Assembly: GCA_025449115.1 (NCBI GenBank)
Contig: JAHLKC010000106.1
Coordinates: 62,001-126,000, forward strand
Reading direction: 5' to 3'
Source of the DNA: Chytridium lagenaria
Taxonomy: Eukaryota > Chytridiomycota > Chytridiomycetes > Chytridiales > Chytridiaceae
DNA: 64,000 nucleotides
Shown: positions 22,206 through 64,000 of the stretch, piece after piece
Numbering within the stretch: position 1 is the first letter of the stretch
Layout: each line of letters opens with the position of its first letter
Position numbers and translations under genes: made by a program
The notes under the pieces: generated by a model
Told to the model about the DNA's origin: nothing
Databases searched by the model: none
Seen by the model: only the letters and a program-made list of their open reading frames with translations

Positions 22206-24383
22206 ATGTCGTCAAGAGAATGCCAGATCATCTCGCAAGGATTCCCGACCCTCAACATCCCATCATCGCAATGCTGTAATATCACACGTCCAAATTCAAA
22301 GGAGTCGGATCCACCCATGATCGAATGCGATACTGCGGGGTCGGTGACGGGGTTAAGGCTGAATACGTTGGGACTCTCGGGGACACTTCCGAGGACGATT
22401 GGAGGATTGGTGAATTTGAGGCTTTTGTAAGATGTTGAATGGGTATATCAATATTAAACTTGTGTTAGGTTTCTTTTGCAAAATCAGTTTCAGGGATCAC
22501 TTCCTGTGGAGATTACGTATTTGAAGCAATTGACGGTTTTGTATGCTTTTTTTCTTTTTCGTTTCATTAGTTTGATCTTTTTGTTGGTTTGGTAACATCA
22601 TTGCTTTTTTCAAAGATGGATTCAGAGTAATGGATTTAGCGGGAGAATACCGTCAGGGTTTGAAGAAATGGACAATCTCCAGTGGATGTAAGATTGAGGA
22701 TGTGGGGGAGAAATCTCTAACATTAGGATTATAGCCAATTAGGATATAATTACTTTTCGGGGAGGCTGCCAGCGCGTATCTCGAGACTGGGCTTTAAAGA
22801 GTAAGTTTCCTAATATTGTCGCACTCTTTTTATAACTGTTTGCTTAAAACGTTATTAACTGTCTTTTTTACATAGTATTAATAACAACTGTTTTGCTCCA
22901 AACGATATCACAAACAGTTCCGCGTTCTTCAAGTAAAGTCTTTTTATCTTTTTTGGTTTCAATTGAGGTTTTTTCAAGTATACTAAAGTTGATCCTTACT
23001 TAGTATTCAAATGCGACCTGCGTCTGATTGCGCCCCGTATCTCAACGACGCCTCACTCCCCGACACAGTTGCCTTACCTCCATTCTCACCCGCCCAAGAC
23101 GACAGCCCAGAAACTCCTTTGTCACCATCAAACACGGCAACCACATCCGACTCCTCAGTCACTACTCTGGGAACCACCGACGCATCAGCAACGTCAGACA
23201 TCAACTCTGAGTCGTTGAGCGTTACATCCGGATCCAGTTTTTTTGTGACTATCGCTACGGCTCGAACTGGAGGAACTGGTGGAAGCCAAGTGGGTGGTTT
23301 GTTTACAACGACGGGGAGCGTTGGCGTTGGTGGAAATGATACAACCGGGAACGCTTCTTCGACATCTTTTAACCTCCCTCTTGCTATTGCTGTTCCTTTT
23401 GTCGCTGTGGCAGTGATTCTGGCTATCGTTGGTGCGTTGCTGGTGAGACGTAGAAAGTTTGGGAAAATCAGCGAAACTAGAAATATAGAGAGGAATAGAG
23501 GAAATGAAGATTATGAGGGAGGTCCAATGACGTCACCTAGGTTTCCTGGATCGTCGGATTTGGTTGCATCAGCAGCAGCACCGCCGTCTGTACACAATGA
23601 TGTGACGGAAATCAAGGCCTTACCCGCAGTTGTCCCAATATCGGGACATTTGGAAAGGGAAAGCGGAAATCGTCGACGAGAACGCAGCTCTTTCAAACCG
23701 TCTGGGCTTCTTTCCAATCTTGATATCGAAAAACATTCACCAGGCATTACCCAAGTTCAAATCGTTCCCTCTGTTGAGAAACCAATGATTGGAATCGCTG
23801 AGACGCGTCACGCGGATGTGTTGTGAAATTACCGTTACCTGCTGTATCGTCGACTTCGCCTTTATTGAAACAGCGGCCTTTGGTTGCACCTCGGCGGACT
23901 GTTGGGATGTCTGCAAAGAATACTCCGCCTGAAAGAGGGGCGAGCTTTAGAGTGGTGCAGGCGACTTTGAATAGTGGAAGTGATGGGGGTAATGGGACGG
24001 GGGATTTTGTGAGATGGAGTTGTGAGGACGTGGCGGGTTGGCTTCTGGCTACAGGGTTAAGTCCTCAAATTGTTGAAACTTTTAGAGGTATGTATTCTTA
24101 TCCCGATCCCGTACCTACCCCCATTATTTATCATCCGTTTTCCACATTTTTTTTTTAATAATTGCGTGGTTTCTTATTGCTATTTTAAAAGATTACGGCA
24201 TCGAAGGCTATAAACTTCTCCTACTGTCCGACCAAACCCTTGTGGATATGGGTATCGACAACTTGAATGTTAGAGCTTTGATACTGTTTGCCCTCGAACG
24301 ATTACGGAATCCTGACGTAGCTTCCGCGTCGTCATCAAACGCTGTGAATGCGACCGTGGATGCCCCCCCCACGGTATTCATGA
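22206..24383 (+). CDS. LRR-TM-SAM receptor-like protein A
   Basis: Exon 1 encodes the Cys cap (ECQIISQGFPTLNI, then CC and a later Cys) and the first repeat. Further one-repeat exons give QGSLPVEITYLKQL, SGRIPSGFEEM and SGRLPARISRL. From 23011 comes a Ser/Thr/Pro-rich stalk, then a transmembrane helix (LPLAIAVPFVAVAVILAIVG) followed by LLVRRRKFG, which puts the C-terminus in the cytosol. After about 200 residues of linker comes a SAM domain (WSCEDVAGWLLATGLSPQIV, an intron at about 24089-24191, then YGIEGYKLLLLSDQTLVDMG and ALERLR). Frame breaks occur at about 23820 and within the C8 run at 24363-24370. Restoring the latter frame makes the protein end PPPRYS at 24381-24383, like its paralogues; read literally it stops at 24388. 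First of the eleven-member cluster. Confidence 0.8.
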
Positions 24384-24633
24384 TTTGATAGGTTCCTTTC
24401 CGTTTATTACGTGACGTTCCGTTCGATTCCTCTATATTTTTTAGGCAATTTTTTAGAAACATAGATTATAAGTTAGCCGTGCATTTACAAGTCATCCACC
24501 GAGAATAAAATAAAATAAAATATCAAACCGGCTTTTTGCTACCCTTGCTGTTTATGTCCAAGTCCGAGAGCCCCTACTGGCTGAATGGTCACAAAGTGAG
24601 CAAAAATCAACTTGATTACTGAATTTCTCAAAA

Positions 24634-26786: not shown

Positions 26787-29148
26787 ATGACATCGCCTTC
26801 GCAGTTTGACTGTAACGTGGTTGCATCCGCCTTCCCATCACTCGGTATCCCTGTCAGCAACAACAGGACATTATGCTGCAGAGAGAACTATATTCAATGC
26901 AATTTTCAAGCAAAAATCACTGAGTTGTAAGTATTGCAGAGATTGAATGGCTGTTCCATCCTCTTGAACTTGCTAATTGCCGTATTTCTTGTTGCTGTCC
27001 ACTTTCTACCCCCAAACTTTATACCTTCCTTCCGCATATTCATCTTTTTCTTTGACTCTTGCAGATACTTTTCTTCAAGTAATCTTACAGGACAACTTCC
27101 CATTGCACTTCGAAGCCTTGGTGAACTTAGGAGATTGTGAGTATCTGCCCTTTGTCCATTATCTGGTCGTTTTAGCTTTACTGACCAGATTTTCTCTTAG
27201 GTTCCTTTCTAAAAATGGTGCGAGTTAAATTCTGGATATGATATTCTTTGGCATCGGTTTCTAATTGCCTTTCCAATCACAGCCTTTGAAGGAACGATTC
27301 CAACAGAATGGAGCGAATTAAAGAGCCTACAATACCTGTTAGTGTCTAACGACTTCCATCACATCTCTTTCACCTCTTATGGTTCATTTCTTCATTGAAA
27401 ATCATTCTGTCTCCATTTTATATAATTTCCTCAAGGTACTGATTATTGTTATGTAGATACCTGGATCAGAACAATTTGACAGGAAATGTGCCATCTTCAT
27501 TCTCGAATTTGGCTAATCTGGAGTGGCTGTGAGTGTACTTGACGGATTTCCTTTTTTTAACCAAACCCTCTAATGTTTCTCACGTACCTTCTATTGTTTT
27601 TCTTTTTATTTTTTGATTATTTAGATATCTTTTTTCAAACAACCTATCTGGAGTATTTCCTGATGAAATATTTTCTCTTCCAAGAATATCTGAAATGTTG
27701 GTATCGTTTTCACCCCTTTTAAGGCTGGTTTATTATGCTGAATTATTCAATTTTCATTGTATCAATACAGCCGGCTACAAAACAACTACTTTTATGGCAA
27801 GGTGCCTTCCGTCAGTGCTAGAGTAGCAGACTTGAGGTTCTCTTTCTTCAACCCTTCTTTTATTCAATATCAGTGCTTCAACCATGACCATTTAATGCTT
27901 CACATTGCTAAACCTCCTTTTCCTTTTTCAAGGCTGGACGGGAATTGTTTTACGGCATTTGAACTACCTAGCAAAAACAAGTACGTACTCTAGCTCGTCA
28001 ACCTTTTGCCTATATTCCATTATCTGACATAGTTCCATTTCTTTATAGCGCAACCCAAAGGCGATTCGATCAGTGCACAAACTTTCGATCCTTCAGCACT
28101 GAAATCCTACAAACGACAACTACTTCGCCCCCCACTTTACCTGTACAGCTTCTCCCTATCCCTGCCATCGCTGCCATCGTTACAATCGCTTCTTTAATTT
28201 TTGTTGTGATTGTGGTCGGGACCTCTTTTGTCATATTCCGGAGACAAAGGCTCAAAAGATGTCTCGTGAAGTTACGTCCAAAAAAAAGGAAGGTTAGCCC
28301 TTGTTTTGTCAATCTTAACGCTGATATTTTCTTTGAAACAAAGAATATAGGATTTAGAGTCAACAGCCTCCACCAGACCCTCAAGTAGCTTTCCTGCCGA
28401 CACTCTTTTGTCGCCAAACTTTCCGCTTCAGAGAAAAATGAACATCAAAGCGGAATGCTTTTTGTTGGAACTGAAGCGCCTGTTTTGAAGCTGATAACAA
28501 GGTGTCCATCGAAGGGGGTGGTCTGTTTGCTGGAGTTAGCACTGATAACAAGGCAGCGCAGGGAGATGGACGTCGACTCTTTTTCGTCAATAGCGATGAA
28601 TGTCCGACTTGGAATCAGAGGGATCTTTGTCGAAACGGTCGGATAAGGAGAAGGAGGCAGGGTTTTCGCTGCAAAGCCATGGTGCGATACAAAATACTTG
28701 GTCCGGAGGTGTCGATGTCATAGACTCCGACATTTCCGAAGGGAGTAGGGCTCAGGAAGATCGTCGGGGACAAGCACTGCGAATACTATTAGTGATATCG
28801 CGCTATGGAAAATTAAGGATGTATCGCAGTGGTTGCTGATGCGTGGTTTGGGCAGCAGATGGTGGATTTATTTAAAGGTCAGTTTCATATTAAATCCGAT
28901 GAAATAATCAACACATCTCTATCCCTTTCTTTAAATAGCTAACGATATCAATGGATATAAGCTTCTGCTTCTCTCTGAACGCACCTTGCATGCCATGGGT
29001 ATTGACGATGAGATACACTGAGTTGATTCTCTTCGCTATTGATGCCTTCGCGTCAAGATGGGCCGAACTTTGGACAACGTGAGGGCCATTCATCAACATC
29101 ATCAGCGGGAGCTTCGGAAATCGTGATCTTCCACCTGAATATTCTTAA
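26787..29148 (+). CDS. LRR-TM-SAM receptor-like protein C
   Basis: Cap exon DCNVVASAFPSLGI with CC and a third Cys. At least five repeats follow, mostly one per exon: LTGQLPIALRSLGEL, EGTIPTEWSELKSL, LTGNVPSSFSNLANL, LSGVFPDEIFSLPRI and YGKVPSVSARV. Then come LDGNCFTAFELP, a short stalk, a transmembrane helix (VTIASLIFVVIVVGTSFVIF) and RRQRLKR. After about 28390 the frame is broken several times, but a SAM domain is clear: IKDVSQWLLMRGLG and MVDLF, the family's intron at about 28879-28940, then INGYKLLLLSERTLHAMGID. The reading frame recovered at the end terminates in DLPPEYS (TAA 29146-29148). Breaks at about 28385, 28790, 28850 and 29018 mean the tail is not translatable as assembled. Confidence 0.72.
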
Positions 29149-29927
29149 ACACATTTATCTTTCTCAGTCTTAATTCGATACTTTAGAGGATCTATCAGTT
29201 CTTTTTTTCTTTTTATCACTCTATCACTCTGATACTCCGAGATAAGCTCAAGTTTAAATTTTCACTTTTCAATTTTTTCTTCTCTTTTTTACTTTATTTA
29301 TGGATGCCCAGATAGGGTTTCGCCAAGTCTGTCCTTGCTAATTATTGTCACCACTGTAAAATAAACGTATACAGCAGGCAAAAAGCCTTTTTTAAGACAT
29401 GCGAAAATAAGATTAAAACGCCAAATTATTGAATACATAGAAAGGAAAGGAAGAAAAAGGAGAAGGAAGACCATGCTTACCGCAACAGAATGCGTATTTG
29501 TAACCTGGGCTTCTTCGCAACACCGCGGGTAGGAAGAGAGAGAATAAAGAAAACCAATTTGTTTGACTCGGCAGCAATATACAGGCCTCCAAGCCTTTTG
29601 GGGATAGAAATAGTGTTAGCTGCTGAACTTATATGCACGATAAGGGCAGCATTTCGTGTTGAACAACGACTGTAAGACCAGGAGTGCCTCTCATGGGACA
29701 AGAGCTGCAGTCCGTATTTTAAGCACGGCTTTTTGGAAAGAATCTCTAAAACGTATAAAAACAAGACAAGGTGTGTAGTGTTTTATTCAGAAATGAGTAA
29801 AGATATAGACACGGATAATAAAAAACGAATAGAACAAGAGAAAGCATATTTCCAAAGAGAATAAAGTATGAAGAGGGCATTATATAAAGGCTTGTGAGAA
29901 ACGTGATCAAACATCCATGAGGTTTGC
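29149..29927. other. Intergenic spacer
   Basis: Convergent 3' region between gene C and the minus-strand S41B gene. No repeat or gene is recognised. Confidence 0.4.
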
Positions 29928-31433: not shown

Positions 31434-31477
31434 AAGCTGTTTGAAGACGTGGCAGATAACTTTAGTGCCATTGTCCC

Positions 31478-36133: not shown

Positions 36134-38386
36134 ATGGCAAATGCATCCACAGACTGCCCCATCTTGGCGGATGCTCTGCCGACGCTCAACATCAGCAGGA
36201 CACAATGCTGCTCAACCGATTTCAACGATCCTGTCAGCTGCCGGAACGGGCGGCTTGTTAAAGTGTGAGTAGAGCTGAGTGAGCGACATGATAGTGTGAT
36301 CGTTGTCGGTGTCAAGATGGAATGCAGGCGGAATTCGTTGTTGGTGTTAACATGGAATGAATGATGAATTCTTTTTGTTTGATTTTCATGAGTTTCTTTT
36401 AATGCTCATTGGTTTTATCTAGTAATTTTGAAAACTGCGCTGTCAACGGCCCTCTCTCTCCTCTCCTCGCCAACCTTACTGCCCTAAGACACTTGTGAGT
36501 ATCTGTTGTTTACGCAAAGCTATCTATCTAACATGGTCCAAAACAAAAGTAGGCTCGACAATTGCAAAGTAACGGGTTCCATACCTTCATGGATATCAGC
36601 GTGGCAAAACCTGACTCACTTGTAAGTGGGAATAATCTGCTTGTTCTGGGGAAATCAAAGCTAACACCTTTAGATTTTTGGCTGAAAACGAACTTTCAGG
36701 ACCTTTGCCTTCTAGTTGGACGAATTTCAGTTTACGGCAGGTCGACCTACGAATGAATAGCATATCAGGGGAGATTCCTTTTATACAAAACTCTTCTTTG
36801 TTAAGCATTGTAAGTACTTGTCATTGTCCACTTGAATGTTTCAATTAACAAAACTTTGATATAAGAGATCTGTCGGATAACCTTTTTACTGGTCTATTCC
36901 GCAAAGTCTTACGACTATACAGAGAATTTATACTTTGTACGTACACATAAACCTCTTTGTTTAATATTTACCAAATTCCCTAAACGTTTCTCGGTTTCAA
37001 GGCGTCTCAACGGAAATAGACTCTACGGACCTATACCAGCCGAGTTTGAGCGGTCTTTGGTGGTTTCGCGTTGTATGACATTTTTGGTTTTTTCTGTATT
37101 TTGCCATAATTGTCTATTACTATTCATCATCATATTCTTTCTCATTTCGTGTATGTAGAGAGCTTCATCAAAACTATTTGACTGGCCCTGTCCCAATCCT
37201 TCGACAACCTAGACTTATACGTGAGGTTTAAAATATTTGTCCCGTTTTTTTAACATTTCACTTTTCTTATAGATTCGCTGGCAATTGTATTGACGAAAAG
37301 ATCTAATGAATGTCAACACATCAACTAGGTATATTTCTTATCTTTCTGAACACCATAAATCTAACAGGCCGTTTAGTGTTGTCCAAAAATCAAAGCCGAA
37401 TGCCAAGTGTTTTACAGAGCGCTCACGCAAACCTCAAGCCTTCCCAAACCACAACGCCAACACTTTTTACATCCACATCTATACCCGCTTCATCTTTTCC
37501 ATCTCCTTCACCATCATCCATATCTACGATAACAGCTATCACTATCTCTTCCTCGGTCTTGCTCTTTATCATTGCTCTCGCTGCAGGCTTAATTGTCTAT
37601 CGTCGTCGCCGAAACTCTTCACTTGTAGATGCACAAGCAAAGTCACCGTCTTCGATCCCCGCTCGGTCATCTCCTCCCCGAATATCCAACCTCTGCCCAC
37701 CACTGACGTACCTTCCCGCCAGGCTCGACCTCAAACTTAAAACAAGTGAATGGCTCATTTTTTTCATTCGATCCGAATCTTGCAGAGGAATCGCGAGCTG
37801 AATTCACCCCATCCGCCCATTTACATGGTGACGACCCAAGCTCTATATAAACATAACGGATTCGAAAGACCTCGGGACTTCGACGATAGACGACAACGAT
37901 GCAGCAGACGACAAGCAGGAAAATTTATTCGCATCGACGAGTTTTACACCGATATCGAATAAGGCTGTTGAGGCGGGGATGATTTTAAGTGCTGTGGAAC
38001 CAGCGATCCAACAGTCGAGCACGGATCTTGTGATGACGAATGCGGCATCTTGGTCATGTGAAGAGGTTTCCACGTTTTTAGTGAACTGTGGGTTTGATGA
38101 ATCTGTCGTGGATACATTTGAAGGTAAAGTATATCTTTTGCTCCTAGTTTTTTTGTTTTTTTTGTTTTGTGTTTGTCTTTAACGATATTCTTGCAGACGC
38201 AAACGTGGACGGGCAGAAAATTCTTATCCTTACTGACATGGAGCTTGCTGAAATGAATTTCGCCGAGGAGAATACGAGGGTAATGGTGCGGTTTGCTATT
38301 GAGCGGTTGAAGTTTATTCAGGGAAGAGGGGATTCGAGCGATGCTCCTGTGACTTGGGTGCTGATATGCCACCAGAGTATTCGTAA
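36134..38386 (+). CDS. LRR-TM-SAM receptor-like protein D
   Basis: Cap exon MANASTDCPILADALPTLNI with CC and a later Cys. Repeats follow, mostly one per exon: VNGPLSPLLANLTAL, VTGSIPSWISAWQNL, LSGPLPSSW, ISGEIPF, NLFTG, LYGPIPAEFERS and LTGPVP, closing with FAGNCIDEK. A Ser/Pro/Thr stalk leads to a transmembrane helix (ITISSSVLLFIIALAAGLIV) and YRRRRN. The cytosolic part has an acidic linker and a SAM domain (SWSCEEVSTFLVNCGFDESV, an intron at about 38124-38196, then VDGQKILILTDMELAEMNF and FAIERLKFIQG). Frame breaks near 37310, 37665, 37800-37850 and 38345. After the last one the frame ends DMPPEYS at 38384-38386. Convergent with gene E, 336 bases between stops. Confidence 0.77.
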
Positions 38387-48379: not shown

Positions 48380-50599
48380 ATGGCAAATGCATCCACAGAA
48401 TGCCCCATCTTGGCGGATGCTCTGCCGATGCTCAACATCAGCAGGACAGAATGCTGCTCATCCGATTTCGACGATCCTATCAGCTGCTGGAATGGAGGAT
48501 TATTAAAGTGTGAGTAGAGCTGAGTGAGTGACATTCTAAGGTGATCGTTGTCGCCGTTAACATGGAATGAATGATGGATTCTTCTTTGTTTGATTCTAAT
48601 AAATGCCCTACAATGCTCATTGTTTTATATCAGTGGTTTCCGAAACTGCGCTGTCAACGGCCCTCTCTCTCCTCTCCTCGCCAATCTTACGGACCTACTT
48701 TACTTGTGAGTATCTGTTGTTCACTCAAAGCTATCTAACATGGTCGAAAACAAAAGTAGGCTCGACAATTGCAAAGTAACGGGTTCCATACCTTCATGGA
48801 TATCAGCGTGGCAAAGCCTGAATCTCTTGTAAGTGGGAATAATTTGCTTGTTTTGGGGAAATCATAGCTAACACCTGTAGATCTTTGGCTGAAAACGAAC
48901 TTTCAGGACCTTTGCCTTCCAGTCTGGAACGGCTTCCCAGTTTACTGCAGCTCAACCTACGAAGGAACAGCTTTTCGGGGGAGATTCGTTCTGTACAGAA
49001 TGTTGCTGCATTACGCGTTTTGTAAGAGCAATTCATTGTTCCCTTGAATCAGTTCATTGAAACAACTTTGAAATAAGAGATCTATCGGATAACCTTTTGA
49101 CCGGTCCTATTCCGCAAAGTCTTGCGGCTCTGGATCAGTTGGGCTATTTGTACGTAAACGTAAACCTCTTTGTTTAATTTACCCAAATTCCCTAAAGTCT
49201 TCTCGAATTCAAGGCATCTCAATGGAAATAGACTCTACGGACCTATACCAGCCGAGTTTGAGCGGTCTTTGGTGGTTGTGGTGTTGTATGTATTATTGGT
49301 TTTTTTTTATTTTTCCATAATTGTCTATTACCTATTCATCATCATATTCTTTATCATTTCGCCTATGTAGAGAGCTTCATCAAAACTTTTTGACTGGGCC
49401 TGTCCCGATCCTTTGGTCACCATTTCTAGGTTTTACGTAAGGCTTTAAAATATTATTCCCCATTTTTTAACATTTTACTTTTCTCCAAGATTCTGGCAAT
49501 TGTATTGACGAAAAAGATTTAATGAATGCCAGTACATCAACTAGGTACCTTTCTTATCTCTTCTGAACACCATGATATCTAACAGGCCGTTTAGTATTGT
49601 CCAGAAATCTAAAGCCGAATGCCAAGTGTTTTACAGAGCGCTCACGCAAACCTCAAGCCTTCCCCAAACCACAATCCGGCCAACACTTTTTACATCCACC
49701 TCTATCCCTGCTTCATCGATTCCATCTTCTTCACCATCACCCATATCTACGATAACGGCTATCACTATCTCTTTTCGGTCTTGCTCGTTATCATTGCTAT
49801 CGCTGCAGGCTTAATTGTCTATCGTCGTCGCCGAAACTCTTCACTTGTAGATGCACAAGCAAAGTCACCGTCTTCGATCCCCGCTCGGTCCATCTCCTCC
49901 CCGAATATCCAACCTCTGCCCACCACTAGACGTACCTTCCCGCCAGGCTCGACCTCAAACTTAAAACAAGTGAATGGCTCATTTTTTTCATTCGATCCGA
50001 ATCTTGCAGAGGAATCGAGAGCTGAATTACCCCATCGCCCATTTACATGGTGACGACCCAAGCTCTATTATAAACATAACGGATTCGAAAGACCTCGGGA
50101 CTTCGACGATAGACGACAACGATGCAGCAGACGACAAGCAGGAAAATTTATTCGCATCGACGAGTTTTACACCGATATCGAATAAGGCTGTTGAGGCGGG
50201 GATGATTTTAAGTGCTGTGGAACCAGCGATCCAACAGTCGAGCACGGATCTTGTGAACGAATGCGGCATCTTGGTCATGTGAAGAGGTTTCCACGTTTTT
50301 AGTGAACTGTGGGTTTGATGAATCTGTCGTGGATACATTTGAAGGTAAAGTATATCTTTTGCTCCTAGTTTTTTTGTTTTTTTTGTTTTGTGTTTGTCTT
50401 TAACGATATTTGCAGACGCAAACGTGGATGGGCAGAAAATTCTTTTCTTACTGACATGGAGCTTGCGAAATGAATTTCGCCGAGGAGAATACGAGGGTAA
50501 TGGTGCGGTTTGCTATTGAGCGGTTGAAGTTTATTCAGGGAAGAGGGGATTCGAGCGATGCTGGTGGCTTGGGTGCTGATGCCACCAGAGTATTCGTAA
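48380..50599 (+). CDS. LRR-TM-SAM receptor-like protein D'
   Basis: Near-identical duplicate of gene D. Cap MANASTECPILADALPMLNI with CC. Repeat exons VNGPLSPLLANLTDL, VTGSIPSWISAWQSL, LSGPLPSSLERLPSL, FSGEIRSVQNVAAL, LTGPIPQSLAALDQL, LYGPIPAEFERS and LTGPVPIL are better preserved than in D, so D' probably shows the ancestral repeat number. Stalk, transmembrane helix, YRRRRN, acidic linker and SAM (CEEVSTFLVNCGFDESV, then ENTRVMVRFAIERLKFIQG) follow as in D. Breaks near 49530-49680, 49745-49800, 50050, 50255 and 50455-50465 interrupt the frame. The recovered end is MPPEYS at 50597-50599. Convergent with E', 330 bases between stops. Confidence 0.75.
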
Positions 50600-50929: not shown

Positions 50930-53051
50930 CTAAGAATATTCTGGTAGTACGTCTTGATTGACCGCAACGGGGAACTTGGAAGTCATGTCTGCAGCTGCCA
51001 TTCGCTGTTGAATATCGTAACCGTTGTATCGCAAACTCAATAAGCGCTCGACTGTTATAGTCTATGATACCCATATCATCAGTCTCTCTTCCGTCACCTC
51101 CATTAACAAAGCACCGTGATGTCATGAGCTACAAGCAACACGGATCAGCCATTAGCAGACAACAGTCTAAAAAAGGAAAACAAGTAATGTAGACCCACCT
51201 TCGAAAACCTCAATAACTGCAGCCGGAACCACATTTCGCAAGCCATGATATCACTTCTTCCTCGACCATCTTCAGGTCCCGCCATCGAATGTGTTCAATC
51301 ACTCATCATATAGTCCCCTTCCACCGTAGTACTATCCAAGCTGACGATGTCGCAACAGTGCCACTCCGACCAACCGACGCCACGGATCCATTCGACTTTC
51401 CCATCAAAGTTGCACGCCTTCCAACCGTCGGAGCCGGATCCGTCTCCGACTTGCTCATGACCCTCATTTCGTAAAACACCATATCATCAGGTGGAGCACG
51501 ACTCTCCACCACCTCTAAATTCGCAAACAACGTGCTTGAACCTTTTTCGCGGACCGGCTGCAAGATGATGGGATATGATGTGAATCGCGGTTCCAAATCG
51601 ATGGAAGAGGATTCGATTTGTCGACGTCGCGGAAAGCATAGAGCGCCACCGCGGAAAGTGCAAACACGAGGAGAAGAGATGTTGCAATGGATGCAGCGAG
51701 GACTGTTGTGTTGACAGTGGTAGACGGGGCTGGGGTATTAGAGGGTAAGGATGCCGCCGTGCTTGTAGGAGGCTGGGAGGTAGCGGGAGTTTTGAAGCGG
51801 TTTCGTAAAGGCTAAGCATTCGGCTGGCAGTCGCTGTCTTTGGAAGATACTAGACGATGATTTTAGCTTTTTCTGCTCTGTGCACCAAAGATATGACGGA
51901 CAAAATATATACCTTGTCAAGTTGGATTCGGTAACATCGGATTCCTCTATGCAATTGCCGTCAAGGCTTTAAACAAACAAACAAACAGAATTAGGTGTGA
52001 AATAAATAGAACTTTTTAGAGCTCACCTAGTCCCCCAGCGCCATGAACTTGGAATAGGACCGGTTAAATAGTTACCTTGCAATCTTCTGCTCAAAATAAT
52101 TACTATTAACATACCACTGATTTAACTGCTAAAACATACAGGTCTGTAAGACTTCCGAGGCCTATCACAAAATCAGGTATCTTCCCACTCAATCTATTTC
52201 TATCTAATCCCCTATTCGCGATTGCCGAAAGAGCGTTAAAAGTAAGAAAAGTCGAAGGATCCACTTACAGTGTTGAAATGTTTCGTAAATTAGCAAAGGA
52301 AACTGGAATATCTTCAGTGAGAAAATTATTCGATACACTCTAAATATCAACAGTCAATACGAAAATCCAACTTTAAGTCATAGACAAAACAACGGAAAAG
52401 TTACAGGGTACACTCACAAGTGTTGAAATGTTCACCAGTTCCCCAAGTTCCGATGGAATAGGTCCTTCAAATGCATTTTGCTCCAAGAACCTATTTCCAT
52501 TTGAAAAAAATGAGTGTTTATTGTACATGACAAAAGCCTTGAACTTACAATGTGTCCAAAGTCTGCAACGTTCCTATGGATTTAGGAATTCTCCCCGAGA
52601 GTTGATTTACACTCAAGTCTCTGTAACAAAAAAGAATAAACCAACTGACGCTGTCTTAATGCCGGTAGACTCACAAGTTTACAAGTTTTGTGAAATTGGA
52701 GAATGAGTCTGGAAGCTCTCCGTAAAGCCCGGATTTGTATATTGTGCTGCATTTTGATAAAATGTTAGACTTTTGAGTATAAACAGGAATCACCCACAGA
52801 TTTTCCAGCTCTGACAGCTGCATCAAAACTGTCGGGAACGTTATGTTGATGTTCACAAGGGTCGTAGCTCTAAAAACATCTCAGTGATTGACTGTAAGGT
52901 ATTCTTACAAATAGCGGATCCGGCCATCACCATTACAACGAAGGATGGGACGATCATGGCTTGCGCCCTCTATGCAGCAATCAGGTCTCCTGACGTTGAG
53001 CATGGGGAAGGCATCCGCAACAATGTCGCAATCCGACAGCGGAGATGCCAT
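50930..53051 (-). CDS. LRR-TM-SAM receptor-like protein E'
   Basis: Duplicate of gene E. It starts at 53051 with the MASPLSDCDIVADAFPMLNV cap and contains the same repeat exons (YGELPDSFSNFTKL, LSGRIPKSIGTLQTL, EGPIPSELGELVNV, then KIPDF-like and YLTGPIPSSW), the NCIEES exon, stalk, transmembrane helix and SAM (SWLAKCGF-like, FAIQRLRYS). It ends DVLPEYS at the TAG 50930-50932. It has more small deletions than E in the SAM and linker exons (for example near 51010, 51090, 51240, 51610), so E' is probably further along in decay. Head-to-head with a GH26-like fragment, 84 bases between start codons. Confidence 0.7.
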
Positions 53052-54309: not shown

Positions 54310-55998
54310 ATGTCACTCTTAACAGACTGCCCCATCATCGCCAGTGCCTTCCCATCGCTCAACATCCCATCAGGAAACTGCCTGTGCTTTCGACGGCATC
54401 AAATGCATCGAAGATGGAGCCATTTCCATTATGTTCGTTTGCTCGCTCCATTCATTTTGATCATGAACATTGTACTAAGGTGGGAAAACTAGTTATTTTC
54501 AGAACAGAAGTCTCAGCGGAACTATATCACCAAGGATCGCCGGATTGGCAAAGTTGATGAGGATGTGAGTTTAAAGATGGTGTAATGCTTTTGTTACTAA
54601 TGTATGAATTAGCGATTTGAGTGGGAACAGGCTGGAAGGGAGCATCCCGTCTGAGATCGGAAGCATCACTGGACTATTTGAATTGCAAGTATTCTCTATT
54701 CATTCTCTTGTTTCATCTTCTTTTCTTGCCGTATACGGATACTAATGTTTTTGTTAGAGGGTTGGCAGATAACAACCTTACCGGATCCATTCCATCATCG
54801 TTAGGGCAATTGGAGCGTTTGGAAAGACTGTAAGCAGAAAAATCTCTTTTTCGTTTCTCTTTTGCTTCCTTTCTTTCTCTTCCTTATGTCACCATTCAAC
54901 CGCATACATAGCGATCTCAGCAAAAAATCGTCTGACCGGAACGGTCCCAAGTGACCTCGGAAAACTTCAAAACCTGTACAACTTGTAAGTTAACGTTTGC
55001 GGGTTTTGGACGTTTCAATCATGAATAGAATTCTGACGTTTATTTGGGGGAATTTTTTAAAAAGGAACCTTGCATCCAACGAATTGACCGGAACGATTCC
55101 GGCATTCATCCCGAGTTTGAAGAGGCTTGAGGACTTGTATGCCCTATCTGCTACCCTATGCGTTTATCCTAAGTATTCTTCTAGGGCTCTCGGATCCAAT
55201 CGTTTTACCGGAGAGGTCCCTTCGAATATTTCGGCACTTGAAAAGCTCATTTTTTTGTGGAGTGCTAAGAGGAAATTTCAATTTACCTTGGCCTCTCTGT
55301 TTCCTGACATTTGGTGGTTGAAGACGACTCGAGTCCAATGAACTCACCGGCACGATCCCAACGTCATTAAGCGGCCTTAAGAACCTTATCTCTGTGTAAG
55401 TCTTTCCCTTCCCGCTTAGTTCAAGTCATTTGTAACTCTCATTTCATTAGTTCTCTTTTCAACAACAAGATGCGAGGTGAAATTCCCATCTTCTTTCAAG
55501 CCTCGGTCCGAATTCGACCATGTAAGAACAGAAACCCTATCCTTATTGCATTCTTCAACACCTGTTCTTCATCTCATTTCCGTGAACAGAAGCCTGCAAT
55601 CCAACTATTTCTCCGGCTACATCCCCAAATGAATGTTGCAACGTAAGTCCCTTCCGAAAACTTTATCGCGTTCCTCACCTCTTTTCCCCCAGGCTTCAAA
55701 TGAACTGTTTCCGGCCTGAAGATATAGTCAACCAAGTTTTCGGAACGTGAGTCACTTTCTTTTTACTCAGCTATTGTTGACGTCAAAAAAATGTAGCCCT
55801 CAACGTTCCGACGCTGAGTGCATCGAGTTTCTTGGAAGCCTTCCGAGTCCTGGTGTTGCGCCTGGAGCTAAAGCGACTGTTGGGACAACCAGTCCTACTG
55901 GTACCGCAGGTTCGAGTGGGAGCGGGGGACTGAGAGGATGGGCTGTGGCGATGGGTGTGTCGGTTGTGACGGCGGCTGTTATGGGAGCGTTGGTGTAG
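54310..55998 (+). CDS. LRR protein I, probably GPI-anchored, without SAM
   Basis: Cap MSLLTDCPIIASAFPSLNIP with a Cys pair (a frame break near 54383 splits it). Eight or nine repeats, mostly one per 72-base exon: SLSGTISPRIAGLAKL, LEGSIPSEIGSITGL, LTGSIPSSLGQLERL, LTGTVPSDLGKLQNL, LTGTIPAFIPSLKRL, FTGEVPSNISALEKL, LTGTIPTSLSGLKNL, MRGEIPIFF and FSGYIPK, then MNCFRPEDI. The last exon has a Cys, a Thr/Gly/Ser-rich stalk and a C-terminal hydrophobic stretch (WAVAMGVSVVTAAVMGALV) at the very end, which fits a GPI signal better than a receptor helix. No SAM, no PPxY. One intron (from 54687) seems to use a GC donor (TT/GCAAGT). Confidence 0.78.
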
Positions 55999-56948: not shown

Positions 56949-59105
56949 ATGGCATCTCCGCTGTCGGATTGCGACATCGTTGCTGACGCCTTCCCCATGC
57001 TCAACGTCAGGAGACCTGATTGCTGCATAGGGGGCTCAAGCAGTGATCGTCCTAGCCTTCTTTGTAATGATGCTGGCCGGATCCGCTATTTGTAAGAATA
57101 CCTTACAATCAATCACTGAGATGTTTTAAGATCTACGACCCTTGTGAACATCAACATAACGTTCCCGACGGCTTTGATGCAGCTGTCAGAGCTGGAAGAT
57201 CTGTAGGTAATTTCTGTTTATACTCAAAGTCTAACATTTTATCAAAATGCAGCAGAATCGATAGATCCGGGCTTTACGGAGAGCTTCCAGACTCATTCTC
57301 GAATTTCACCAAACTTGTAAACTTGTAAGTCTATCGCATTAAGACAGCGTCAGTTGGTTTATTCTTTTTTGTTACAGAGATTTGAGTTTAAATCAACTCT
57401 CGGGGAGAATTCCTAAATCCATAGGAACGTTGCAGACTTTGGACACATTGTAAGTTCAAGGCTTTTGTCATGTACAAGAAACACTTATGTTTATTTTAAA
57501 ATTGACATAGGGTTTTGGAGCAGAATGAATTTGAAGGACCTATTCCATCGGAACTTGGGGAACTGGTGAACGTTTCAACAATTGTGAGTGTACCCTGTAG
57601 TTTTTCGTTTGTTTTGGTGTATATGTTCGAGTGGGCTTTTGTTATTTACTTTTTATATTTAGAGCTTACGAATAACTTGCTCACTGGAGATATTCCAGTT
57701 TCCTTTGCTAATTTACGAAACATTTCAATATTGTAAGTGGATCCTTCGACTTTTCTTACTTTTAACGCTCTTTTGGCAATCGCGAATAGGGGATTTGATA
57801 GAAATAGATTGAGTGGGAAGGTTCCTGATTTTGTGATAGGCCTCGAAAGTCTTAGAGATCTGTAAGTTTTAGTTAAATCGGTTGGTATGTTAATAATCAT
57901 TGTTTTGAGCAGAAGATTGCAGGGTAACTATTTAACCGGTCCTATTCCAAGTTCTTGGCGCTGGAGGACTAGGTGAGCTTTAAAAAGTTGTATTTATTTC
58001 ACACCTAATTTTGTTTGTTTGTTTATTTAAAGCCTTGACAGCAATTGCATAGAGGAATCCGATGATACCGAATCCAACTTGGAAGGTATATATTTCGTCC
58101 GTCATATCTTTGGTGCACAGAGCAGAAAATGCTAAATCATCGTCTAGTATCTTCAAAGACAGCGACTGCCAGCCGAATGCTTAGCCTTTTACGGAACCAC
58201 TTCACAACTTCCCGCCACCTCCCAGCCTCCTACAAGCACAGCGGCATCCTTACCTCTAGTACCCAACCCACCTACCACGGTCAACACAACAGTCCTCGCT
58301 GCATCCATTGCAACATCTCTCTCCTCGTCTTTGCACTAACCGTGTGGCGCTCTATGCAGTCCGCCGACGTCGACAAATCGACGGTAGGCCTTTTTTCTCA
58401 TTTTCTCCAAATCCTCTTCATTGATTCGGAACCGCGATTCACATCACACCCCATCATCGTGCAGCCGGTCAACGAAAAAGGTTCAAGCACGTTGTTTGCG
58501 AATTTAGAGGTGGTGGAGAGTCGTACTCCACCTGATGATATGGTGTTTTACGAAATGAGGGATGAGCAAGTCGGAGATGGATCGGCTCCAACGGTTGGAA
58601 GGAGTTCAACGTTTGATGGGAAAGTCGAATGGATCCGTGGCGTCGGTTGGTCGGAGTGGCACTGTTGCCACATCGTCAGCTTGGGATAGTGCTACGGTGG
58701 AAGGGGACTATAATGATGAAATATTGAACACGATTCGATGGCGAGGGACCCTGAAGATTGGTCGAGGAAAGAAGTGATATCATGGCTTGCGAAATGTGGG
58801 TTCCGGCCTGCAGTTATTGAGGTTTTCGAAGGTGGGTCAATTACTCGATCTTTGGCCTTTTAGTCTTTTTGTATGTTAATGATTGATCCGTGTTGCTTTG
58901 TAGCTCATGAAATCACGGGTGCTTTGTTAATGGAAGGTGACGGAAGATAGACTGATAGATATGGGTATCTGAGCATAACAGTCGAGCTCTTATTGATTTG
59001 CGATTACAACGGTTACGATATTCAAAAGCGAATGGCAGGTCTGCAAACATGACTTCCGAGTTCCCTGTTGCGGTCAATCAAGACGTACTACCAGAGTATT
59101 CTTAG
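56949..59105 (+). CDS. LRR-TM-SAM receptor-like protein F
   Basis: E-type gene on the plus strand. Cap MASPLSDCDIVADAFPMLNV, CC and a third Cys. One-repeat exons: NINITFPTALMQLSELEDL, YGELPDSFSNFTKL, LSGRIPKSIGTLQTL, EGPIPSELGELVNV, LTGDIPVSFANLRNI, LSGKVPDFVIGLESL and LTGPIPSSW, then LDSNCIEESD. Repeat exons have no frame break, which makes F the best template for the E type. Stalk and transmembrane exon (about 58150-58370) is frame-broken near 58180-58370 and reads YAVRRRRQID in one frame. SAM: EDWSRKEVISWLAKCGFRPA, the family's intron at about 58830-58903, then HEITGALLM and LQRLRYSKA with small indels near 58935-59000. Ends DVLPEYS at the TAG 59103-59105. Confidence 0.76.
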
Positions 59106-59515
59106 GGCGTCTTTTTCTTTTTGTGCTGGTCTATATGCATACCCTTCATTTTTAAACAATTCCCGATTTTTCCTTTTTTATAAATTATATATCATTTCGC
59201 TCTATGCAATCGAACGTTGATTATTGCGATCGTACTTTATTGTTTGGTTATATTTTCAACTTTATGCGGAAACAGCCAATTTTTTATTTTTTTTTTCACT
59301 CAATATTTATTCCCTTCGTCAACCTACGCTCTTTGCAAAGGTTTTTATCGCTCTGATTTAATTTATTAAATATGTGATGATGATGGCTTTCACACCGCCT
59401 TTTTACTCTGGCAAGATCCTCACTTTACGTTTAGACTCTAATGACTACTTCACTTTTGTTAATAACAACGTGTGTCTCTTTAACGAGAATCTTTTAAGAA
59501 TACTGTGGGGGTATC
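59106..59515. other. Convergent 3' spacer of F and H
   Basis: Homologous in part to the spacers between D and E (38387-38722) and between D' and E', in reverse orientation. It carries the shared motifs TTGATTATTGCGATCGTACT and AACCTACGCTCTTTGCAAAG. Confidence 0.6.
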
Positions 59516-61799
59516 TCAAACCCCTGCTTCATCAACCCCGTCATCGTTTAAGTCCATACTCTGCTGCATTAACTTTAACCTCTCGATCGCAATCAGCACC
59601 AATACCCTCGTATCCTCCTCAATAACGCCCATCTCCACAAGCTCCGAGTGAGAAAGAACAAGAAGTTTAGGCCATCCATTTCAGCAACTGTAAGGATAAA
59701 GTCAGAAACCGGAAATAGTAAAAAGAAAGGAAAAAAAAAAAAGAAAGAAAAGGTAGAAAGAACGAAAAAGATAAAAAAGATAAGAGGGTATATCCTACAC
59801 TGAAATTTCTCTACTAAGGGTTGATCAAAGCCGCAGTTCACCAAATACGAAGAGACTTGTTGACAGGACCAAGATAACGCATTCGTCATCACAAGATCGG
59901 TACTCGACTGTTGGATCGCTGGTTCCTCAATCCTCAATATAATCCCAGACTCTGCACCCGTATCCGACAAGGCCATAGATTCCGTTATTGTCATCGACGG
60001 GAACAAGTTTCCCTGTTTCTCATCTCCCGCATAGCTATCGTCCTTTTCAGCAGGGATTTTCGCCGTCGCAAGCAATTTTGGGTCTGTCGCAATAACCATA
60101 GGAGCTTGGTTCGTCACCGTGTAATAGGTTTAATGGAGTGAATAAAAACTCTGTTCTTGTTCACACTTTGAATAAAATGAAAATAATGTGCCCTCTGGTT
60201 TGACGGATGCCGAGATGGAATCGGGTAGGAGATTATGTGTTGAGGTGGGATGAGGTAGATTAATCGAGGATAGTGGCTCCGCTTTGTGCATTAACGAGTG
60301 AAGCTTTTCGGCGACGGCGATACATTATTAGACAAGCAATTATGGCGATGATAACGACCAAGGCCGAGGCTGATATGGCGATGGCGATTGTCGCGGATGC
60401 GGGTGATTGTAAATTGGGTGAAGGAGTTGAAGGAGATGAAGAAGGGATGGACGTGGATGTAAAGAATACTGGCTGAGCCGAGGTTTCGGGGAAGTTTCCT
60501 GTTTGAGGGATCGCGCTGTAGAAGCTTCACATTCCGCTCTGGCCTCTGCAGAACACTGCAAGGGATGTTAGAATAAATACTTTTATAAAGAAAATTACCT
60601 AGTAGACGTTATGGCATTCAATACATCTTTTCGTCGAAACAATTGCCATCGATTCTATGGAACATGACAGAATATGGGAACAATTTTTTAAAAAGGGAAC
60701 TAGTCAGCGAAGCTTATACCGAAGATTTGGAGAAGCTATCTTTGGGAGGGACTAATGAAATAGTTGCGTCGAAGGTCTCTGCAAGAATCAAGAATGAAAA
60801 CAATTGATTATAAGTATGTAGTAAACAATTTAGCACAAGAAGTGTAGATACAGATACACCGTACATTTATAAAAACCTGTTCGAGCGACCCAATTCGGCT
60901 GGTATAGGTCCATAGAGATTATTATCGTTAAAGTTTCTAGAATAAAATAATATGTGGTTTAGGAGAATTGCGGGAAATGAACGAAGTTACGTACAAAGAA
61001 AACATTTCAGGTAGAATTGCAATACTTTGCGGAAAAAAAACCGGTAAAAAGGTTATCTGATAGATCCCTAATATAAGCTTTTATCAAACCAGGGATTAAA
61101 AGTAGATTTACCTACAGTGCGTACAAATCAGTAGTGTTCTGCAACACCGGTATCTCGCCCGAGAGTCTATTAGATTGTAAAAGTAGCTGCCTTAACATAG
61201 AAAGACGGTCTAAACTTGAAGGCAGCGGGCCAGAAAGTTCTTTTTGGGCAAAGCTCTACAACCGGTGTAAGCTTACATCCCCTTCAACAAGAGAAAAACA
61301 AATTCACCTACAAAAATACCAGGTTTTGCCAAGCTGATATCCAGGAAGGTAAGGCGCCTGTGACTCTGCAGTTTGAAATTTGACTTTGATTTGGGCCATG
61401 TTAAATGATTCTGGAGTAAATGACGTTTCGGGCACCCACAATTCTTTGAGGCCAGTGAGGTTGGCGAGGAGAGGAGAAAGTGGGCCGTTGATAGAGCAAT
61501 CTTTAAACACACTAGATGAGAATGATTAGCACTGTTCGGTCCCACGATACGAGTTATAGAAAAGTGGATGTTTTCAGCGATTCTTCTCGTACGTTCATAT
61601 GCCTCTCAAACGCACCGCAGCAAAGGATCACCCTCTGTCTCAGCTCACTAACTAATAATACTTACACTTTGACAACCCTCCCATTATCGCAGTAGATGGG
61701 AGCGTTGGGATTCAATGAGCAGCACAGTGTCCTGTTGATGTTTAGCGTCGGAAGAGCATCCGCCAAAATGGGGCAGTCGACAGACGCTGCGAACGCCAT
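59516..61799 (-). CDS. LRR-TM-SAM receptor-like protein H
   Basis: D-type gene on the minus strand. Start placed at 61799 by alignment with D: MAFAASVDCPILADALPTLN, CC and a later Cys; the frame is open upstream but unrelated. Repeats: INGPLSPLLANLTGL, an irregular one around PETSFTPESF, LSGEIPVLQNTT-like (about 61150), LTGFFSA-like, LYGPIPAELGRS-like (about 60900). The transmembrane exon (about 60440-60270) is frame-shifted but encodes IAISASALVVIIAIIA-like residues and RRRRKA. SAM: SWSCQQVSSYLVNCGFDQPL, the intron at about 59690-59797, then DGL and RVLVLIAIERLKLMQQ. Literal stop at 59516-59518; one base shift gives IPPQYS ending at about 59502. Divergent from G by 191 bases. Confidence 0.7.
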
Positions 61800-61990
61800 T
61801 ACTCCGTCGCTTGCAAGTGGGTCTTGGGTTGAAGGATAGAAACGGTGATGTAAAAGTATTGAAATACCCAACCTCGATATGAGTGAGTTGTCATGGAACA
61901 CTAAGTATTTATTTATTAGGTGGGTGACTGGGTCACTATCACCTGTGTCTCACTCTGTTACCCCTAATCCATCGTTTGAAAGCCGTCCTC
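61800..61990. promoter_or_regulatory. Divergent promoter region of H and G
   Basis: 191 bases between two LRR-SAM start codons, with a TATTTATTTATTA stretch near 61907-61919 that could serve as a TATA element. Not similar to the 80-base divergent promoters. Confidence 0.4.
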
Positions 61991-64000
61991 ATGGGCGTCT
62001 CCGCTGTCGGACTGCGACGTTGTAGCTGACACCTTTCCCATGCTCATCGTGAGCAGAACCGGTTGCTGTATCACGACCTCTATTTCCAAAAGTCCCAACA
62101 CTCCCGACATCTATTGTAATGATGATGGTCGGATCCGCTATTTGTAAGATCATCTTGCCATCGATCCTTTAATGTCTTTAGATCTACGTCCCTTGTGAAC
62201 TTGGACCAAATGTTCCCGACGACTCTGATGCAGCTGTCAGATTTGGAAGAGCTGTTTGTATTTTACGTTATTGCCGTATTCTAACTTTATTATTATTATT
62301 TTTTTTTTTTTTGGATATGTGCAGTAAATTTGATAGATCCGGGCTCTATGGACAGCTCCCGGACTCTATTTCCAACTTTACAAAGCTGAGAGTTTTGTAA
62401 GTCTGTTAGCCGAAAGATGGCACGGGTTTGCTTACCCTTTAACCATAGATATTTAGGTGCAAATAAACTCTCGGGTAGAATACCTTTATCCATTGCAACA
62501 ATGCAGAATTTAGAGCAGTTGTTAGTTTTTTATTAGGCTTTTATCAATGTTTCAAGCTTTTTTAACCTTCTGTTTATAGGACACTAGCGGAAAATTCATT
62601 TGACGGGCCTATTCCGGCGGGACTTGGGAGATTGGCGAAAATCTCAGTGATTGTACTTTACTCATCTACTGCAGTTTCTTCTCTGATACCCTTTTTAACT
62701 TTAGAGCTTGACAAATAATTTGCTCACTGGAGAGATTCCGTCTTCATTTGTTAATCTGTTTAGTATTTCTACGATGTAAGTTGATAACCCTCAAGTTTCC
62801 TTGCTTTTGACGCTATATTGGGATCGGATAAGGGAACTGGACAGAAATCGATTAAGTGGGAACATTCCGGCGTTTTTGACGGGGTTAAGGAATCTTACAA
62901 ACCTGTAAGTTTAAGTAGTCAGTTTAAATATTTTTTAAACGACTCTTATTTGAGGCAGGCAATTACAGGGTAACTATTTTACCGGTCCTGTACCAAACCT
63001 TTGGCGCTGGGGGAATACGTGAGTTTACTGCAATAGTGTTTTTTTTTTTTTTTTTTTTTAATACTGATTTTTACTCAATATTGTTTTTTTCGCATGTTAA
63101 AGACTTGACAGAAATTGCATAAACGAATCTGACATCATCAATTTCAATAACTCTATAAGGTATGTGTATCTTCCTCCATTTTTATTAAAAGAACAATGCT
63201 AAAACCACGTCTAGCATCGTCCAAAAACAGCGGCCGTCAGCCGAATGCCTAGCCTTTTACGGATCCGCTATACAAGTCCCCGCTACCTCCGGGCTTCCGT
63301 CAACCACGGCAACTTCCTTCGTACCTTCTAACACGCCAACCTCACCTACTACTGATAAAACAACTATCCTCGTCGTATCTATCACAACGTCACTCCTCCT
63401 CGTCTTTGCTCTTACCGCGATTACGCTCTATGTAGTCCGTCGACGCCGACATAGCGGCATTAAGCCCCTCTTCCGATTTTCCTCCGCAACCTCTTCCGTT
63501 GAACTCGAACCACGATTCTCATCACATCCTATAGTTGTGCAGCCATTAAACGAAAAAGACGAAATGGCAAGAAGCACCTTGTTCGCGAATCTAGACGTGG
63601 TTGAGAATCGTGGTCCACTGGATGATATTGCATCCTACGCAAAGAGTGGACTAAACGGGTCGGGAACAGGGCCAGCTTCGACGATTGGATGGAGTTCGAC
63701 GTTGGTGAAAGAGGCGGGTAGATCTATGGGGTCGGTTGGGTGGAGCAGCTCTGTTGCAACAAGTTCAGCTGGTGATAGTGTTACGGTGGGAGGGGAGGTT
63801 GACGAAAAAGTGGTTGACCGTGATTTTATGGCGATTGACCCTGAAGAATGGACGAGGAGGGAAGTGGTGCTGTGGCTTACGAGATGTGGTTTCCGGCCTG
63901 AAGTTATAGAGACTTTTGAAGGTGAGTTTACCCATGCCTTACCTTCTTTTCTTTTCTTTTCTTTTCTTTTTTTTTTGTTAGGGGCTGATGCATTTTATCT
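61991..64000 (+). CDS. LRR-TM-SAM receptor-like protein G, 3' end outside window
   Basis: E-type gene. The start ATG 61991 needs one base fewer at 61994-61996 to read on as a MASPLSDCDVVADTFPMLIV cap with CC. Repeat exons: YGQLPDSISNFTKL, LSGRIPLSIATMQNL, DGPIPAGLGRLAKI, LTGEIPSSFVNLFSI, LSGNIPAFLTGLRNL and FTGPVP, then LDRNCINESD. The long exon from about 63215 is intact: CLAFYGSAIQ, Thr/Ser/Pro stalk, transmembrane helix (ILVVSITTSLLLVFALTAIT) and YVVRRRRHS. A linker of about 130 residues leads to the first half of SAM (EEWTRREVVLWLTRCGFRPE, VIETFE) ending at the family's intron at 63922. The second half and tail lie beyond the window. Diverged from E/E'/F, with the cleanest cytosolic part in the cluster. 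Confidence 0.8.

What the first reader, a model, noticed from the sequence alone, without database searches (positions are those of the whole stretch)
22206..64000. Eleven-member cluster of LRR-transmembrane proteins, nine carrying a cytosolic SAM domain
Seen: eleven genes share a Cys cap (C-x-I/V-x3-A/G-F/L-P-x-L-x-I ... CC ... C), plant-type repeats with LxGxIP, one transmembrane helix with a following Arg cluster, and in nine of them a SAM domain after a 100-200 residue linker. Known: LRR receptor kinases and receptor-like proteins use this outer architecture, and SAM domains self-associate or recruit SAM-containing kinases and adaptors. Inference: a fungal receptor-like family in which SAM oligomerisation replaces a kinase, with expansion and repeat variation suggesting recognition of diverse or changing ligands. 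I am not aware of a described system of this form.
Basis: partly seen in the sequence, partly recalled or inferred. Interest (0 to 1): 0.9.

Follow-up and report, generated by a model that had tools for sequence, protein, structure and literature searches.

The report
Chytrid LRR surface receptors with SAM tails
A chytrid fungus carries a cluster of genes for single-pass membrane proteins that join a plant-like leucine-rich-repeat part to a SAM domain and a short tail resembling the docking site of a ubiquitin ligase, a receptor layout we did not find described for fungi.

Summary
The window is from the chytrid Chytridium lagenaria. All eleven genes begin with a Cys cap and plant-type LRRs, mostly one 72-nt exon per repeat; nine carry a SAM domain split by an intron. 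G2 lacks SAM; G8 ends in a GPI-like hydrophobic tail. A twelfth gene lies just outside.

The LRR-TM-SAM join is supported by one open TM-linker-SAM frame (G11), public models with LRR and SAM above Pfam cut-offs, an AlphaFold model, nine further loci of this genome (one without any frame break), and a Dinochytrium kinnereticum protein matching G1's TM-SAM half.

New: [L/P]PxYS-stop, a PY (WW-binding) motif, lies just after SAM in eight of nine window SAM genes (0.25 expected in any frame), though in frame in only two; it is in frame in most copies elsewhere. The genome has a WW-HECT (Rsp5/Nedd4-like) locus. Two subfamilies form convergent pairs, 7 of 7.

Nearly all window copies have frame breaks, but conserved HSP70 loci here do too.

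Best reading: kinase-less LRR receptors acting through SAM association with PY-controlled turnover. Architecture firm; function inferred.

The parts
22206..24383 (+). G1: cap-LRR-TM-linker-SAM gene; TM about 23390-23450; SAM halves 24000-24086 and 24197-24334; PPRYS-stop at 24366 (out of frame with SAM)
   Evidence: TM-SAM half matches Dinochytrium kinnereticum P0126
24634..25959 (+). G2: cap-LRR-TM-Arg gene without SAM
26787..29148 (+). G3: cap-LRR-TM-SAM gene; SAM halves 28794-28847 (weak) and 28947-29012; PPEYS-stop at 29131 (out of frame)
36134..38386 (+). G4 (B type): cap-LRR-TM-SAM; SAM 38036-38122 and 38202-38342; PPEYS-stop at 38369 (out of frame); frame break in one LRR exon
38723..40873 (-). 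G5 (T type): public model P0002 (456 aa, LRR+SAM); SAM 39082-38996 and 38920-38780; LPEYS-stop at 38740 in frame; cap exon disrupted
48380..50599 (+). G6 (B type): cap-LRR-TM-SAM; SAM 50257-50343 and 50467-50559; PPEYS-stop at 50582 (out of frame)
50930..53051 (-). G7 (T type): cap-LRR model P0127 (266 aa), TM and first SAM half broken, second SAM half 51077-50991; LPEYS-stop at 50947 (out of frame)
54310..55998 (+). G8: cap-LRR gene ending in Ser/Gly/Thr-rich stretch plus hydrophobic tail and stop, GPI-anchor-like by eye, no SAM
56949..59105 (+). G9 (T type): public model P0003; SAM 58744-58830 and 58965-59048 (partial); LPEYS-stop at 59088 in frame; TM region frame-broken
59494..61799 (-). 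G10 (B type): cap-LRR-TM-SAM; SAM 59886-59800 and 59668-59552; PPQYS-stop at 59511 (out of frame)
61992..64000 (+). G11 (T type): cap-LRR-TM-SAM, cut by the window end; stalk, TM, linker and first SAM half in one open frame 63189-63998; SAM 63837-63920, second half 64043-64147 in L015; start ATG out of frame; no [L/P]PxYS-stop found
   Evidence: partial public model P0001

Best explanation
A lineage-expanded family of kinase-less cell-surface LRR receptors. Outside: a Cys-capped plant-type LRR solenoid on a Ser/Thr/Pro-rich stalk that binds a ligand or a surface. Membrane: one helix with Arg residues on the inner side. Inside: a long disordered linker, a SAM domain that self-associates or recruits SAM-bearing partners when receptors cluster, and a C-terminal PY motif ([L/P]PxY) that lets a Rsp5/Nedd4-type WW-HECT ligase ubiquitinate and remove the receptor. 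SAM-less G2 and GPI-like G8 would be co-receptors or decoys. Shown by sequence: the order of domains, SAM, the PY motif, a WW-HECT locus, and a locus with SAM and kinase matches in line. Inferred: surface location, ligand binding, SAM association, ligase binding and any signalling outcome.
For: Domain order in the window and in nine of nine further loci examined in full. LRR and SAM above Pfam cut-offs in one public model: P0002, P0125, and P0122 for SAM_2. TM-linker-SAM1 in one frame in G11 and L052. D. kinnereticum P0126 continuous from C-cap through TM and SAM to PPEYS. AlphaFold2: LRR solenoid, helix, disordered linker, five-helix SAM; Foldseek's first 23 rows are plant LRR receptor ectodomains. 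PY motif enriched at gene ends; WW x3 plus HECT on C29. SAM, weak Ras-binding (below cut-off) and kinase matches in this order on one strand of C32. Purifying selection.
Against: No signal peptide recognisable, so delivery of the LRR to the outside is unexplained. Sequons are not enriched on the LRR side in 4 of 5 models. At least ten of eleven window copies have a frame break, and the PY tail is in frame with SAM in only 2 of 9 tails of window plus L015. No expression, ligand or binding data. Homologs found only in two genera of one family.
Confidence: 0.5

Rival explanations
1. Adhesion or self/non-self contact proteins: the LRR sticks zoospores or rhizoids to algal or sister cells, and SAM only clusters the adhesins, without a signal of its own.
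For: Same anatomy. No catalytic domain in the tails. Conserved rather than fast-evolving LRR. A GPI-like member, G8.
Against: The long linker, SAM and PY tail are kept in divergent members (C194, C89) and in D. kinnereticum, more than simple anchoring needs.
Confidence: 0.25
2. Mostly a decaying array: tandem copies made by segmental duplication of convergent pairs, few of them functional.
For: Frame breaks in at least ten of eleven window copies and near-identical pairs such as G6 and C143B.
Against: HSP70 loci of the same assembly show frame changes too. Pooled dN/dS is 0.36-0.45 in the folded parts, although some short comparisons exceed 1. L052 and the C8 B-type gene align end to end without a stop or frame break.
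Confidence: 0.15
3. Gene-model error: the LRR-TM part and the SAM part are separate neighbouring genes.
For: P0126 of D. kinnereticum starts at the C-terminal cap and has no LRR. G1 changes frame between the TM ORF and the SAM ORF.
Against: TM and first SAM half share one open frame in G11 and L052. P0126 is continuous from C-cap to tail. The same order recurs in 9 of 9 loci examined in full outside the window.
Confidence: 0.04
4. Intracellular LRR adaptors: because there is no signal peptide, the LRR could face the cytosol and the protein could sit in an inner membrane with SAM in the lumen.
For: Start ATG 5-11 residues before the first cap Cys in 10 of 11 window genes; no hydrophobic N-terminus in the models.
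Against: Arg residues follow the TM on the SAM side and Cys residues concentrate on the LRR side in four of five models; SAM and PY motifs act in the cytosol (general knowledge).
Confidence: 0.06

Closest known systems
Plant LRR receptor-like proteins and LRR receptor kinases (MIK2, ERL1/2, BRI1, FLS2 ectodomains)
   Same: Plant-type LRR solenoid outside one TM; these are the best fold matches
   Different: No kinase; SAM and PY tail instead; Pfam's plant N-cap LRRNT_2 (PF08263) not matched; no signal peptide seen
Rare fungal LRR plus single-TM proteins (PMC2939053, abstract and section 5 read)
   Same: Fungal LRR with one TM; one of the four species kept was a chytrid
   Different: That survey kept five genes in four species, none with another functional domain; here a family with SAM and PY tail
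Eph receptors (recalled)
   Same: Single TM and a cytosolic SAM near the C-terminus followed by a short docking motif
   Different: No ephrin-binding domain and no kinase; the docking motif is PY-like rather than PDZ-binding
Toll-like receptors (recalled)
   Same: LRR outside, one TM, an associating domain inside
   Different: SAM instead of TIR; plant-type LRR
LRSAM1 (recalled)
   Same: LRR and SAM in one protein
   Different: LRSAM1 is cytosolic and has RING; here TM and no RING

Membership tests
LRR receptor in the sense of PMC2939053 | At least one Pfam LRR and a single TM helix | tested here: met
   LRR_1 above cut-off in P0002, P0122, P0123, P0125; one TM-like segment read from sequence and one long helix in the AlphaFold model; no TM predictor was run
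LRR receptor in the sense of PMC2939053 | LRR faces the outside | not testable with these tools
   Only indirect charge and Cys evidence
Plant LRR-RLK/RLP | Plant N-terminal cap LRRNT_2 (PF08263) | tested here: not met
   Not among matches at E up to 0.01, though a Cys cap is present
Plant LRR-RLK | Cytosolic kinase domain | tested here: not met
   No kinase match in the ten public models
Toll-like receptors | TIR domain | tested here: not met
   No TIR match
Eph receptors | Ephrin-binding domain and tyrosine kinase | tested here: not met
   Neither matched
LRSAM1 | RING domain | tested here: not met
   No RING match
SAM domain proteins | Pfam SAM above curated cut-off | tested here: met
   P0002, P0125, P0126 for SAM_1 and SAM_2; P0122 for SAM_2 only; P0121, P0123, P0124 not matched
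SAM domain proteins | Self- or hetero-association | not tested
   Needs purified domains
PY-motif clients of Nedd4/Rsp5 | PPxY or LPxY motif | tested here: met
   in frame in 2 of 9 tails of window plus L015 and in most copies elsewhere
PY-motif clients of Nedd4/Rsp5 | Binding to WW domains | not testable with these tools
   Only the presence of a WW-HECT locus was shown
GPI-anchored proteins (G8) | Signal peptide plus C-terminal hydrophobic signal | tested here: inconclusive
   Hydrophobic end read by eye, no signal peptide found next to the cap

The most novel reading that the evidence does not exclude
Chytrids of the Chytridiaceae have their own large LRR receptor system, separate from plant and animal ones, in which SAM assemblies replace kinase or TIR signalling, receptor life is set by a C-terminal PY/Rsp5 switch, and two receptor types (B and T) work as heteromeric pairs encoded by convergent gene pairs duplicated as units; the ectodomain reaches the surface without a cleaved signal peptide.
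Probability: 0.3. Interest if true: 0.9.

Novelty: new variant of a known kind. Interest (0 to 1): 0.77.

Why it matters
A survey that included 49 fungi concluded that LRR receptors are almost entirely absent from the kingdom (PMC2939053). This chytrid has a family confirmed on nine contigs, with an inner layout not met in the papers searched. It makes testable how a fungus could sense algae, bacteria or its own kind with LRR receptors, how a receptor can signal through SAM alone, and whether LRR receptor systems arose separately in plants, animals, oomycetes and fungi.

Tried and rejected
Separate genes for LRR and SAM: thought unlikely, see rivals. Contamination or plant origin: rejected, since the genes are intron-rich, lie on many contigs of the assembly and have a match in D. 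kinnereticum. Diversifying selection: pooled values are below 1; single short comparisons above 1 occur (T: G5-G9 in C-cap/stalk 1.57 and in SAM+tail 2.56 with one synonymous change, G5-G7 and G9-C8T in the linker 1.03 and 1.14; B: G4-C72B in C-cap/stalk 1.07, linker 2.30, SAM+tail 1.14, and G4-C143B in C-cap/stalk 1.39). Sequons as proof of an outside LRR: above shuffles in 1 of 5 models only. Signal-peptide exon: hydrophobic stretches upstream in some copies differ by indels that are not multiples of three, so taken as non-coding, not fully excluded; AG sites before the cap Cys fall in different phases and are absent in T genes. Pfam SAM searches of the genome gave no match in the window because SAM is split by an intron. 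Distribution: SAM+tail of P0126 found only itself among 80 candidates; the masked cap+SAM profile found eight C. lagenaria proteins and P0126; both depend on shared 5-residue words. Of 20 regions fetched and scanned, four (L023, L024, L028, L030) hold LRR-TM-SAM genes, two (L025, L026) probably do, seven (L027, L029, L038-L042) show LRRs without the SAM patterns used, and seven (L031-L037), fetched for Pfam SAM or similar matches, show no LRR pattern. A second structure job and a SAM-only fold search were not run.
Full report
Where it is. The window is positions 62001-126000 of a 137,497-base contig (C106) of a 41.9 Mb assembly. Public proteins from a contig of the same length are named Chytridium lagenaria (P0001-P0003; P0127), a chytrid of the family Chytridiaceae.

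Anatomy. I wrote a spliced protein-to-DNA aligner and modelled or read the eleven genes. The common plan is: short N-terminus; Cys cap (C-x2-[I/V]-x3-[A/G]-[F/L]-P ... CC ... C); LRRs with LxGxIP, mostly one 72-nt exon per repeat, mostly with phase-2 introns; a C-terminal Cys pair; a Ser/Thr/Pro-rich stalk; one TM helix followed by Arg residues; a linker; SAM split by one intron; a PY motif. G2 ends after the TM without SAM. G8 ends with a hydrophobic segment and no cytosolic tail.

SAM count. A profile of seven SAM sequences of this genome (four from window genes G1, G4, G5, G10), split near the intron, was run on six frames. Nine window genes have at least one half at E 8e-7 or better. G3 is weak in the first half (E 0.03). 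G7 keeps only part of the first half. G11's second half is outside the window.

Are LRR and SAM one protein? Public model P0002 (G5) exceeds Pfam cut-offs for LRR_1, LRR_8, SAM_1 and SAM_2, and so does P0125 of contig C8. P0122 exceeds that of SAM_2; P0121, P0123 and P0124 show LRR but no SAM at E up to 0.01. In P0123 and P0124 the public model lost or scrambled part of SAM. G11 has stalk, TM, linker and first SAM half in one open frame, 63189-63998. L052 (contig C206) reads from cap through four LRR exons, C-cap, a 794-nt exon with stalk-TM-linker-SAM1 and a last exon ending PPQYS, with no stop or frame break in the alignment. In Dinochytrium kinnereticum (same family), P0126 is a continuous 447-residue model that corresponds to G1 from the C-terminal cap to the tail. 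Its LRR part is not in the model.

Genome-wide. A T-type protein and the SAM+tail of P0126 find more members. In one search, 25 matches have E<=0.001; 18 of them run to within two residues of the query end, 16 of these 18 on 11 contigs other than C106. Not each of these was looked at, and some contigs look like redundant copies. Nine loci outside the window were examined in full (C8 two genes, C72, C143, C194, C15, C39, C206, C89). All nine have LRR, TM and SAM in this order. C72 and C143 also hold a second, partial T gene. C194 and C89 are divergent, so the architecture is old within this genome. Other regions fetched had LRR without the SAM patterns (seven) or SAM without LRR (seven); see Tried and rejected.

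PY tail. [LP]PxYS-stop occurs nine times in any frame of window plus L015. 20 mononucleotide shuffles gave 0.25 on average. Each lies 23-119 bases after a SAM second half on the same strand: in 8 of the 9 SAM genes of the window (not G11) and in the twelfth gene. Only two, in G5 and G9, are in frame with that half; in the other seven a frame break intervenes. Elsewhere the tail is in frame: public models P0121, P0122, P0123, P0125 and P0126 end with it, as do the last ORFs of L050, L051 and L052. Variants keep [L/P]PxY without the terminal Ser-stop: PPQYT (L050) and PPEYSVGTA (L053), and an internal LPPPYLGD (L008). This argues for a WW ligand rather than a free C-terminus. The start of the abstract of PMC8509885 (listing) says that Nedd4-family WW domains recognise PPxY and LPxY. 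The genome has three WW matches within about 725 bases, lying upstream of a HECT match on the same strand of C29, the layout of Rsp5/Nedd4 (recalled).

Pairs. B-type and T-type genes lie tail to tail in 7 of 7 cases seen: G4/G5, G6/G7, G9/G10, G11/twelfth gene, C8, C72, C143. In C72 and C143 the T gene is partial. The pair seems to be the unit of duplication. Whether the products act together is unknown.

Structure. AlphaFold2 of P0125 with ten aligned sequences has mean pLDDT 60.4, pTM 0.44. Blocks of residues 31-150 (LRR) average 81-96, those of 401-470 (SAM, helices 409-473) 80-89, the linker below 50. Foldseek against PDB gives 333 matches at E<=0.001; the first 23 rows are titled plant LRR receptor ectodomains, probability 1.00, only the LRR part aligned. 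The SAM profile finds 67 distinct PDB sequences at E<=0.1, best neurabin-1 at 1.6e-9.

Selection. On aligned codons with at least 50% local identity (a filter that lowers dN), pooled dN/dS for five T genes and six B genes is 0.36 and 0.39 in cap+LRR, 0.75 and 0.69 in C-cap+stalk, 0.33 and 0.51 in TM, 0.60 and 0.39 in the linker, 0.45 and 0.39 in SAM+tail. Some short pairwise values exceed 1 and are listed in Tried and rejected. By repeat position (G12 in place of C143B; only four T and three B repeats could be labelled): concave face 0.37 and 0.54, with flanks 0.43 and 0.84, scaffold 0.16 and 0.25, other positions 0.77 and 0.39. The proteins look constrained, with no sign of an arms race at this resolution. 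Repeat number changes: a 165-bp exon+intron unit is present in 7.4 tandem copies in L050 and about 4.1 in L052; no such array was found among the family genes of the window.

Frame breaks. At least ten of eleven window copies have one. As a control, of six HSP70-family loci of the same assembly, two (L044, L047) show frame changes with overlap or too little room for an intron, a third (L045) may, L043 has none, and two (L046, L048) are unclear. So breaks alone are not evidence of pseudogenes, but errors and decay cannot be told apart here.

Topology. In four of five models the LRR side has 3-7 Cys and the other side 0-2 (P0126, without LRR, has 1 and 2), and net positive charge follows the TM in all five. 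This fits LRR outside. But in 10 of 11 window genes an ATG lies 5-11 residues before the first cap Cys (in G11 the ATG is out of frame). The seven public models that include the first cap Cys all start there. B-type upstream sequences of G6/C143B and G4/C8B/C72B stop resembling each other just upstream of that ATG. How the ectodomain enters the ER is open: a reverse signal-anchor, or an unseen upstream exon.

Literature. PMC2939053 (abstract and section 5 read): LRR plus single-TM genes absent in 43 of 49 fungi; five genes in four species kept, none with another domain. Searches for LRR with SAM, chytrid or Chytridiomycota (no paper; 20 of 2,395 listed; 20 of 30; 20 of 105; 18 of 18; 20 of 20) and for the two species listed no paper that by title or start of abstract describes this architecture. 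Most subscription journals are not held.

Verdict. The architecture is real, repeated across this genome, seen in part in a second genus and under constraint. Receptor function, SAM association and PY-controlled turnover are the likeliest reading and are inferences.

Noticed in passing
54310-55998 (G8): A cluster member with about eight LRRs that ends in a GPI-like hydrophobic tail; an intron-acceptor-like T-rich stretch plus AG lies just before its start ATG.
   Followed up: partly
L050 437-1662 and L052 1113-1790: LRR exon plus intron repeated in tandem with a 165-166 bp period: recent intragenic growth of the repeat domain.
   Followed up: partly
L025 (C18), SAM at about 4274-4393, - strand: Probably another LRR-TM-SAM gene, whose tail has an internal LPPPYL motif; not fully modelled.
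   Followed up: partly
L035 361-3210, - strand (C32): SAM, weak Byr2-type Ras-binding and kinase matches in line: probably a Byr2/Ste11-type MAPKKK, a candidate SAM partner.
   Followed up: partly
C29:158441-160395, - strand: Three WW matches upstream of a HECT match: Rsp5/Nedd4-like ligase locus.
   Followed up: partly
L044, L047 (HSP70 loci on C12): Frame changes inside conserved HSP70-family genes, suggesting indel errors in this assembly.
   Followed up: partly
L027, L029, L038-L042: Further plant-type LRR genes of this genome, several with a TM-like segment and no SAM pattern found.
   Followed up: no
21166-21594 + and 30070-30672 -: A GNAT acetyltransferase ORF next to G1 and a partial S41 peptidase ORF after G3 (Pfam).
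   Followed up: no
11462-12532 - and 12507-13487 -: Two long overlapping ORFs in different frames without Pfam match.
   Followed up: no
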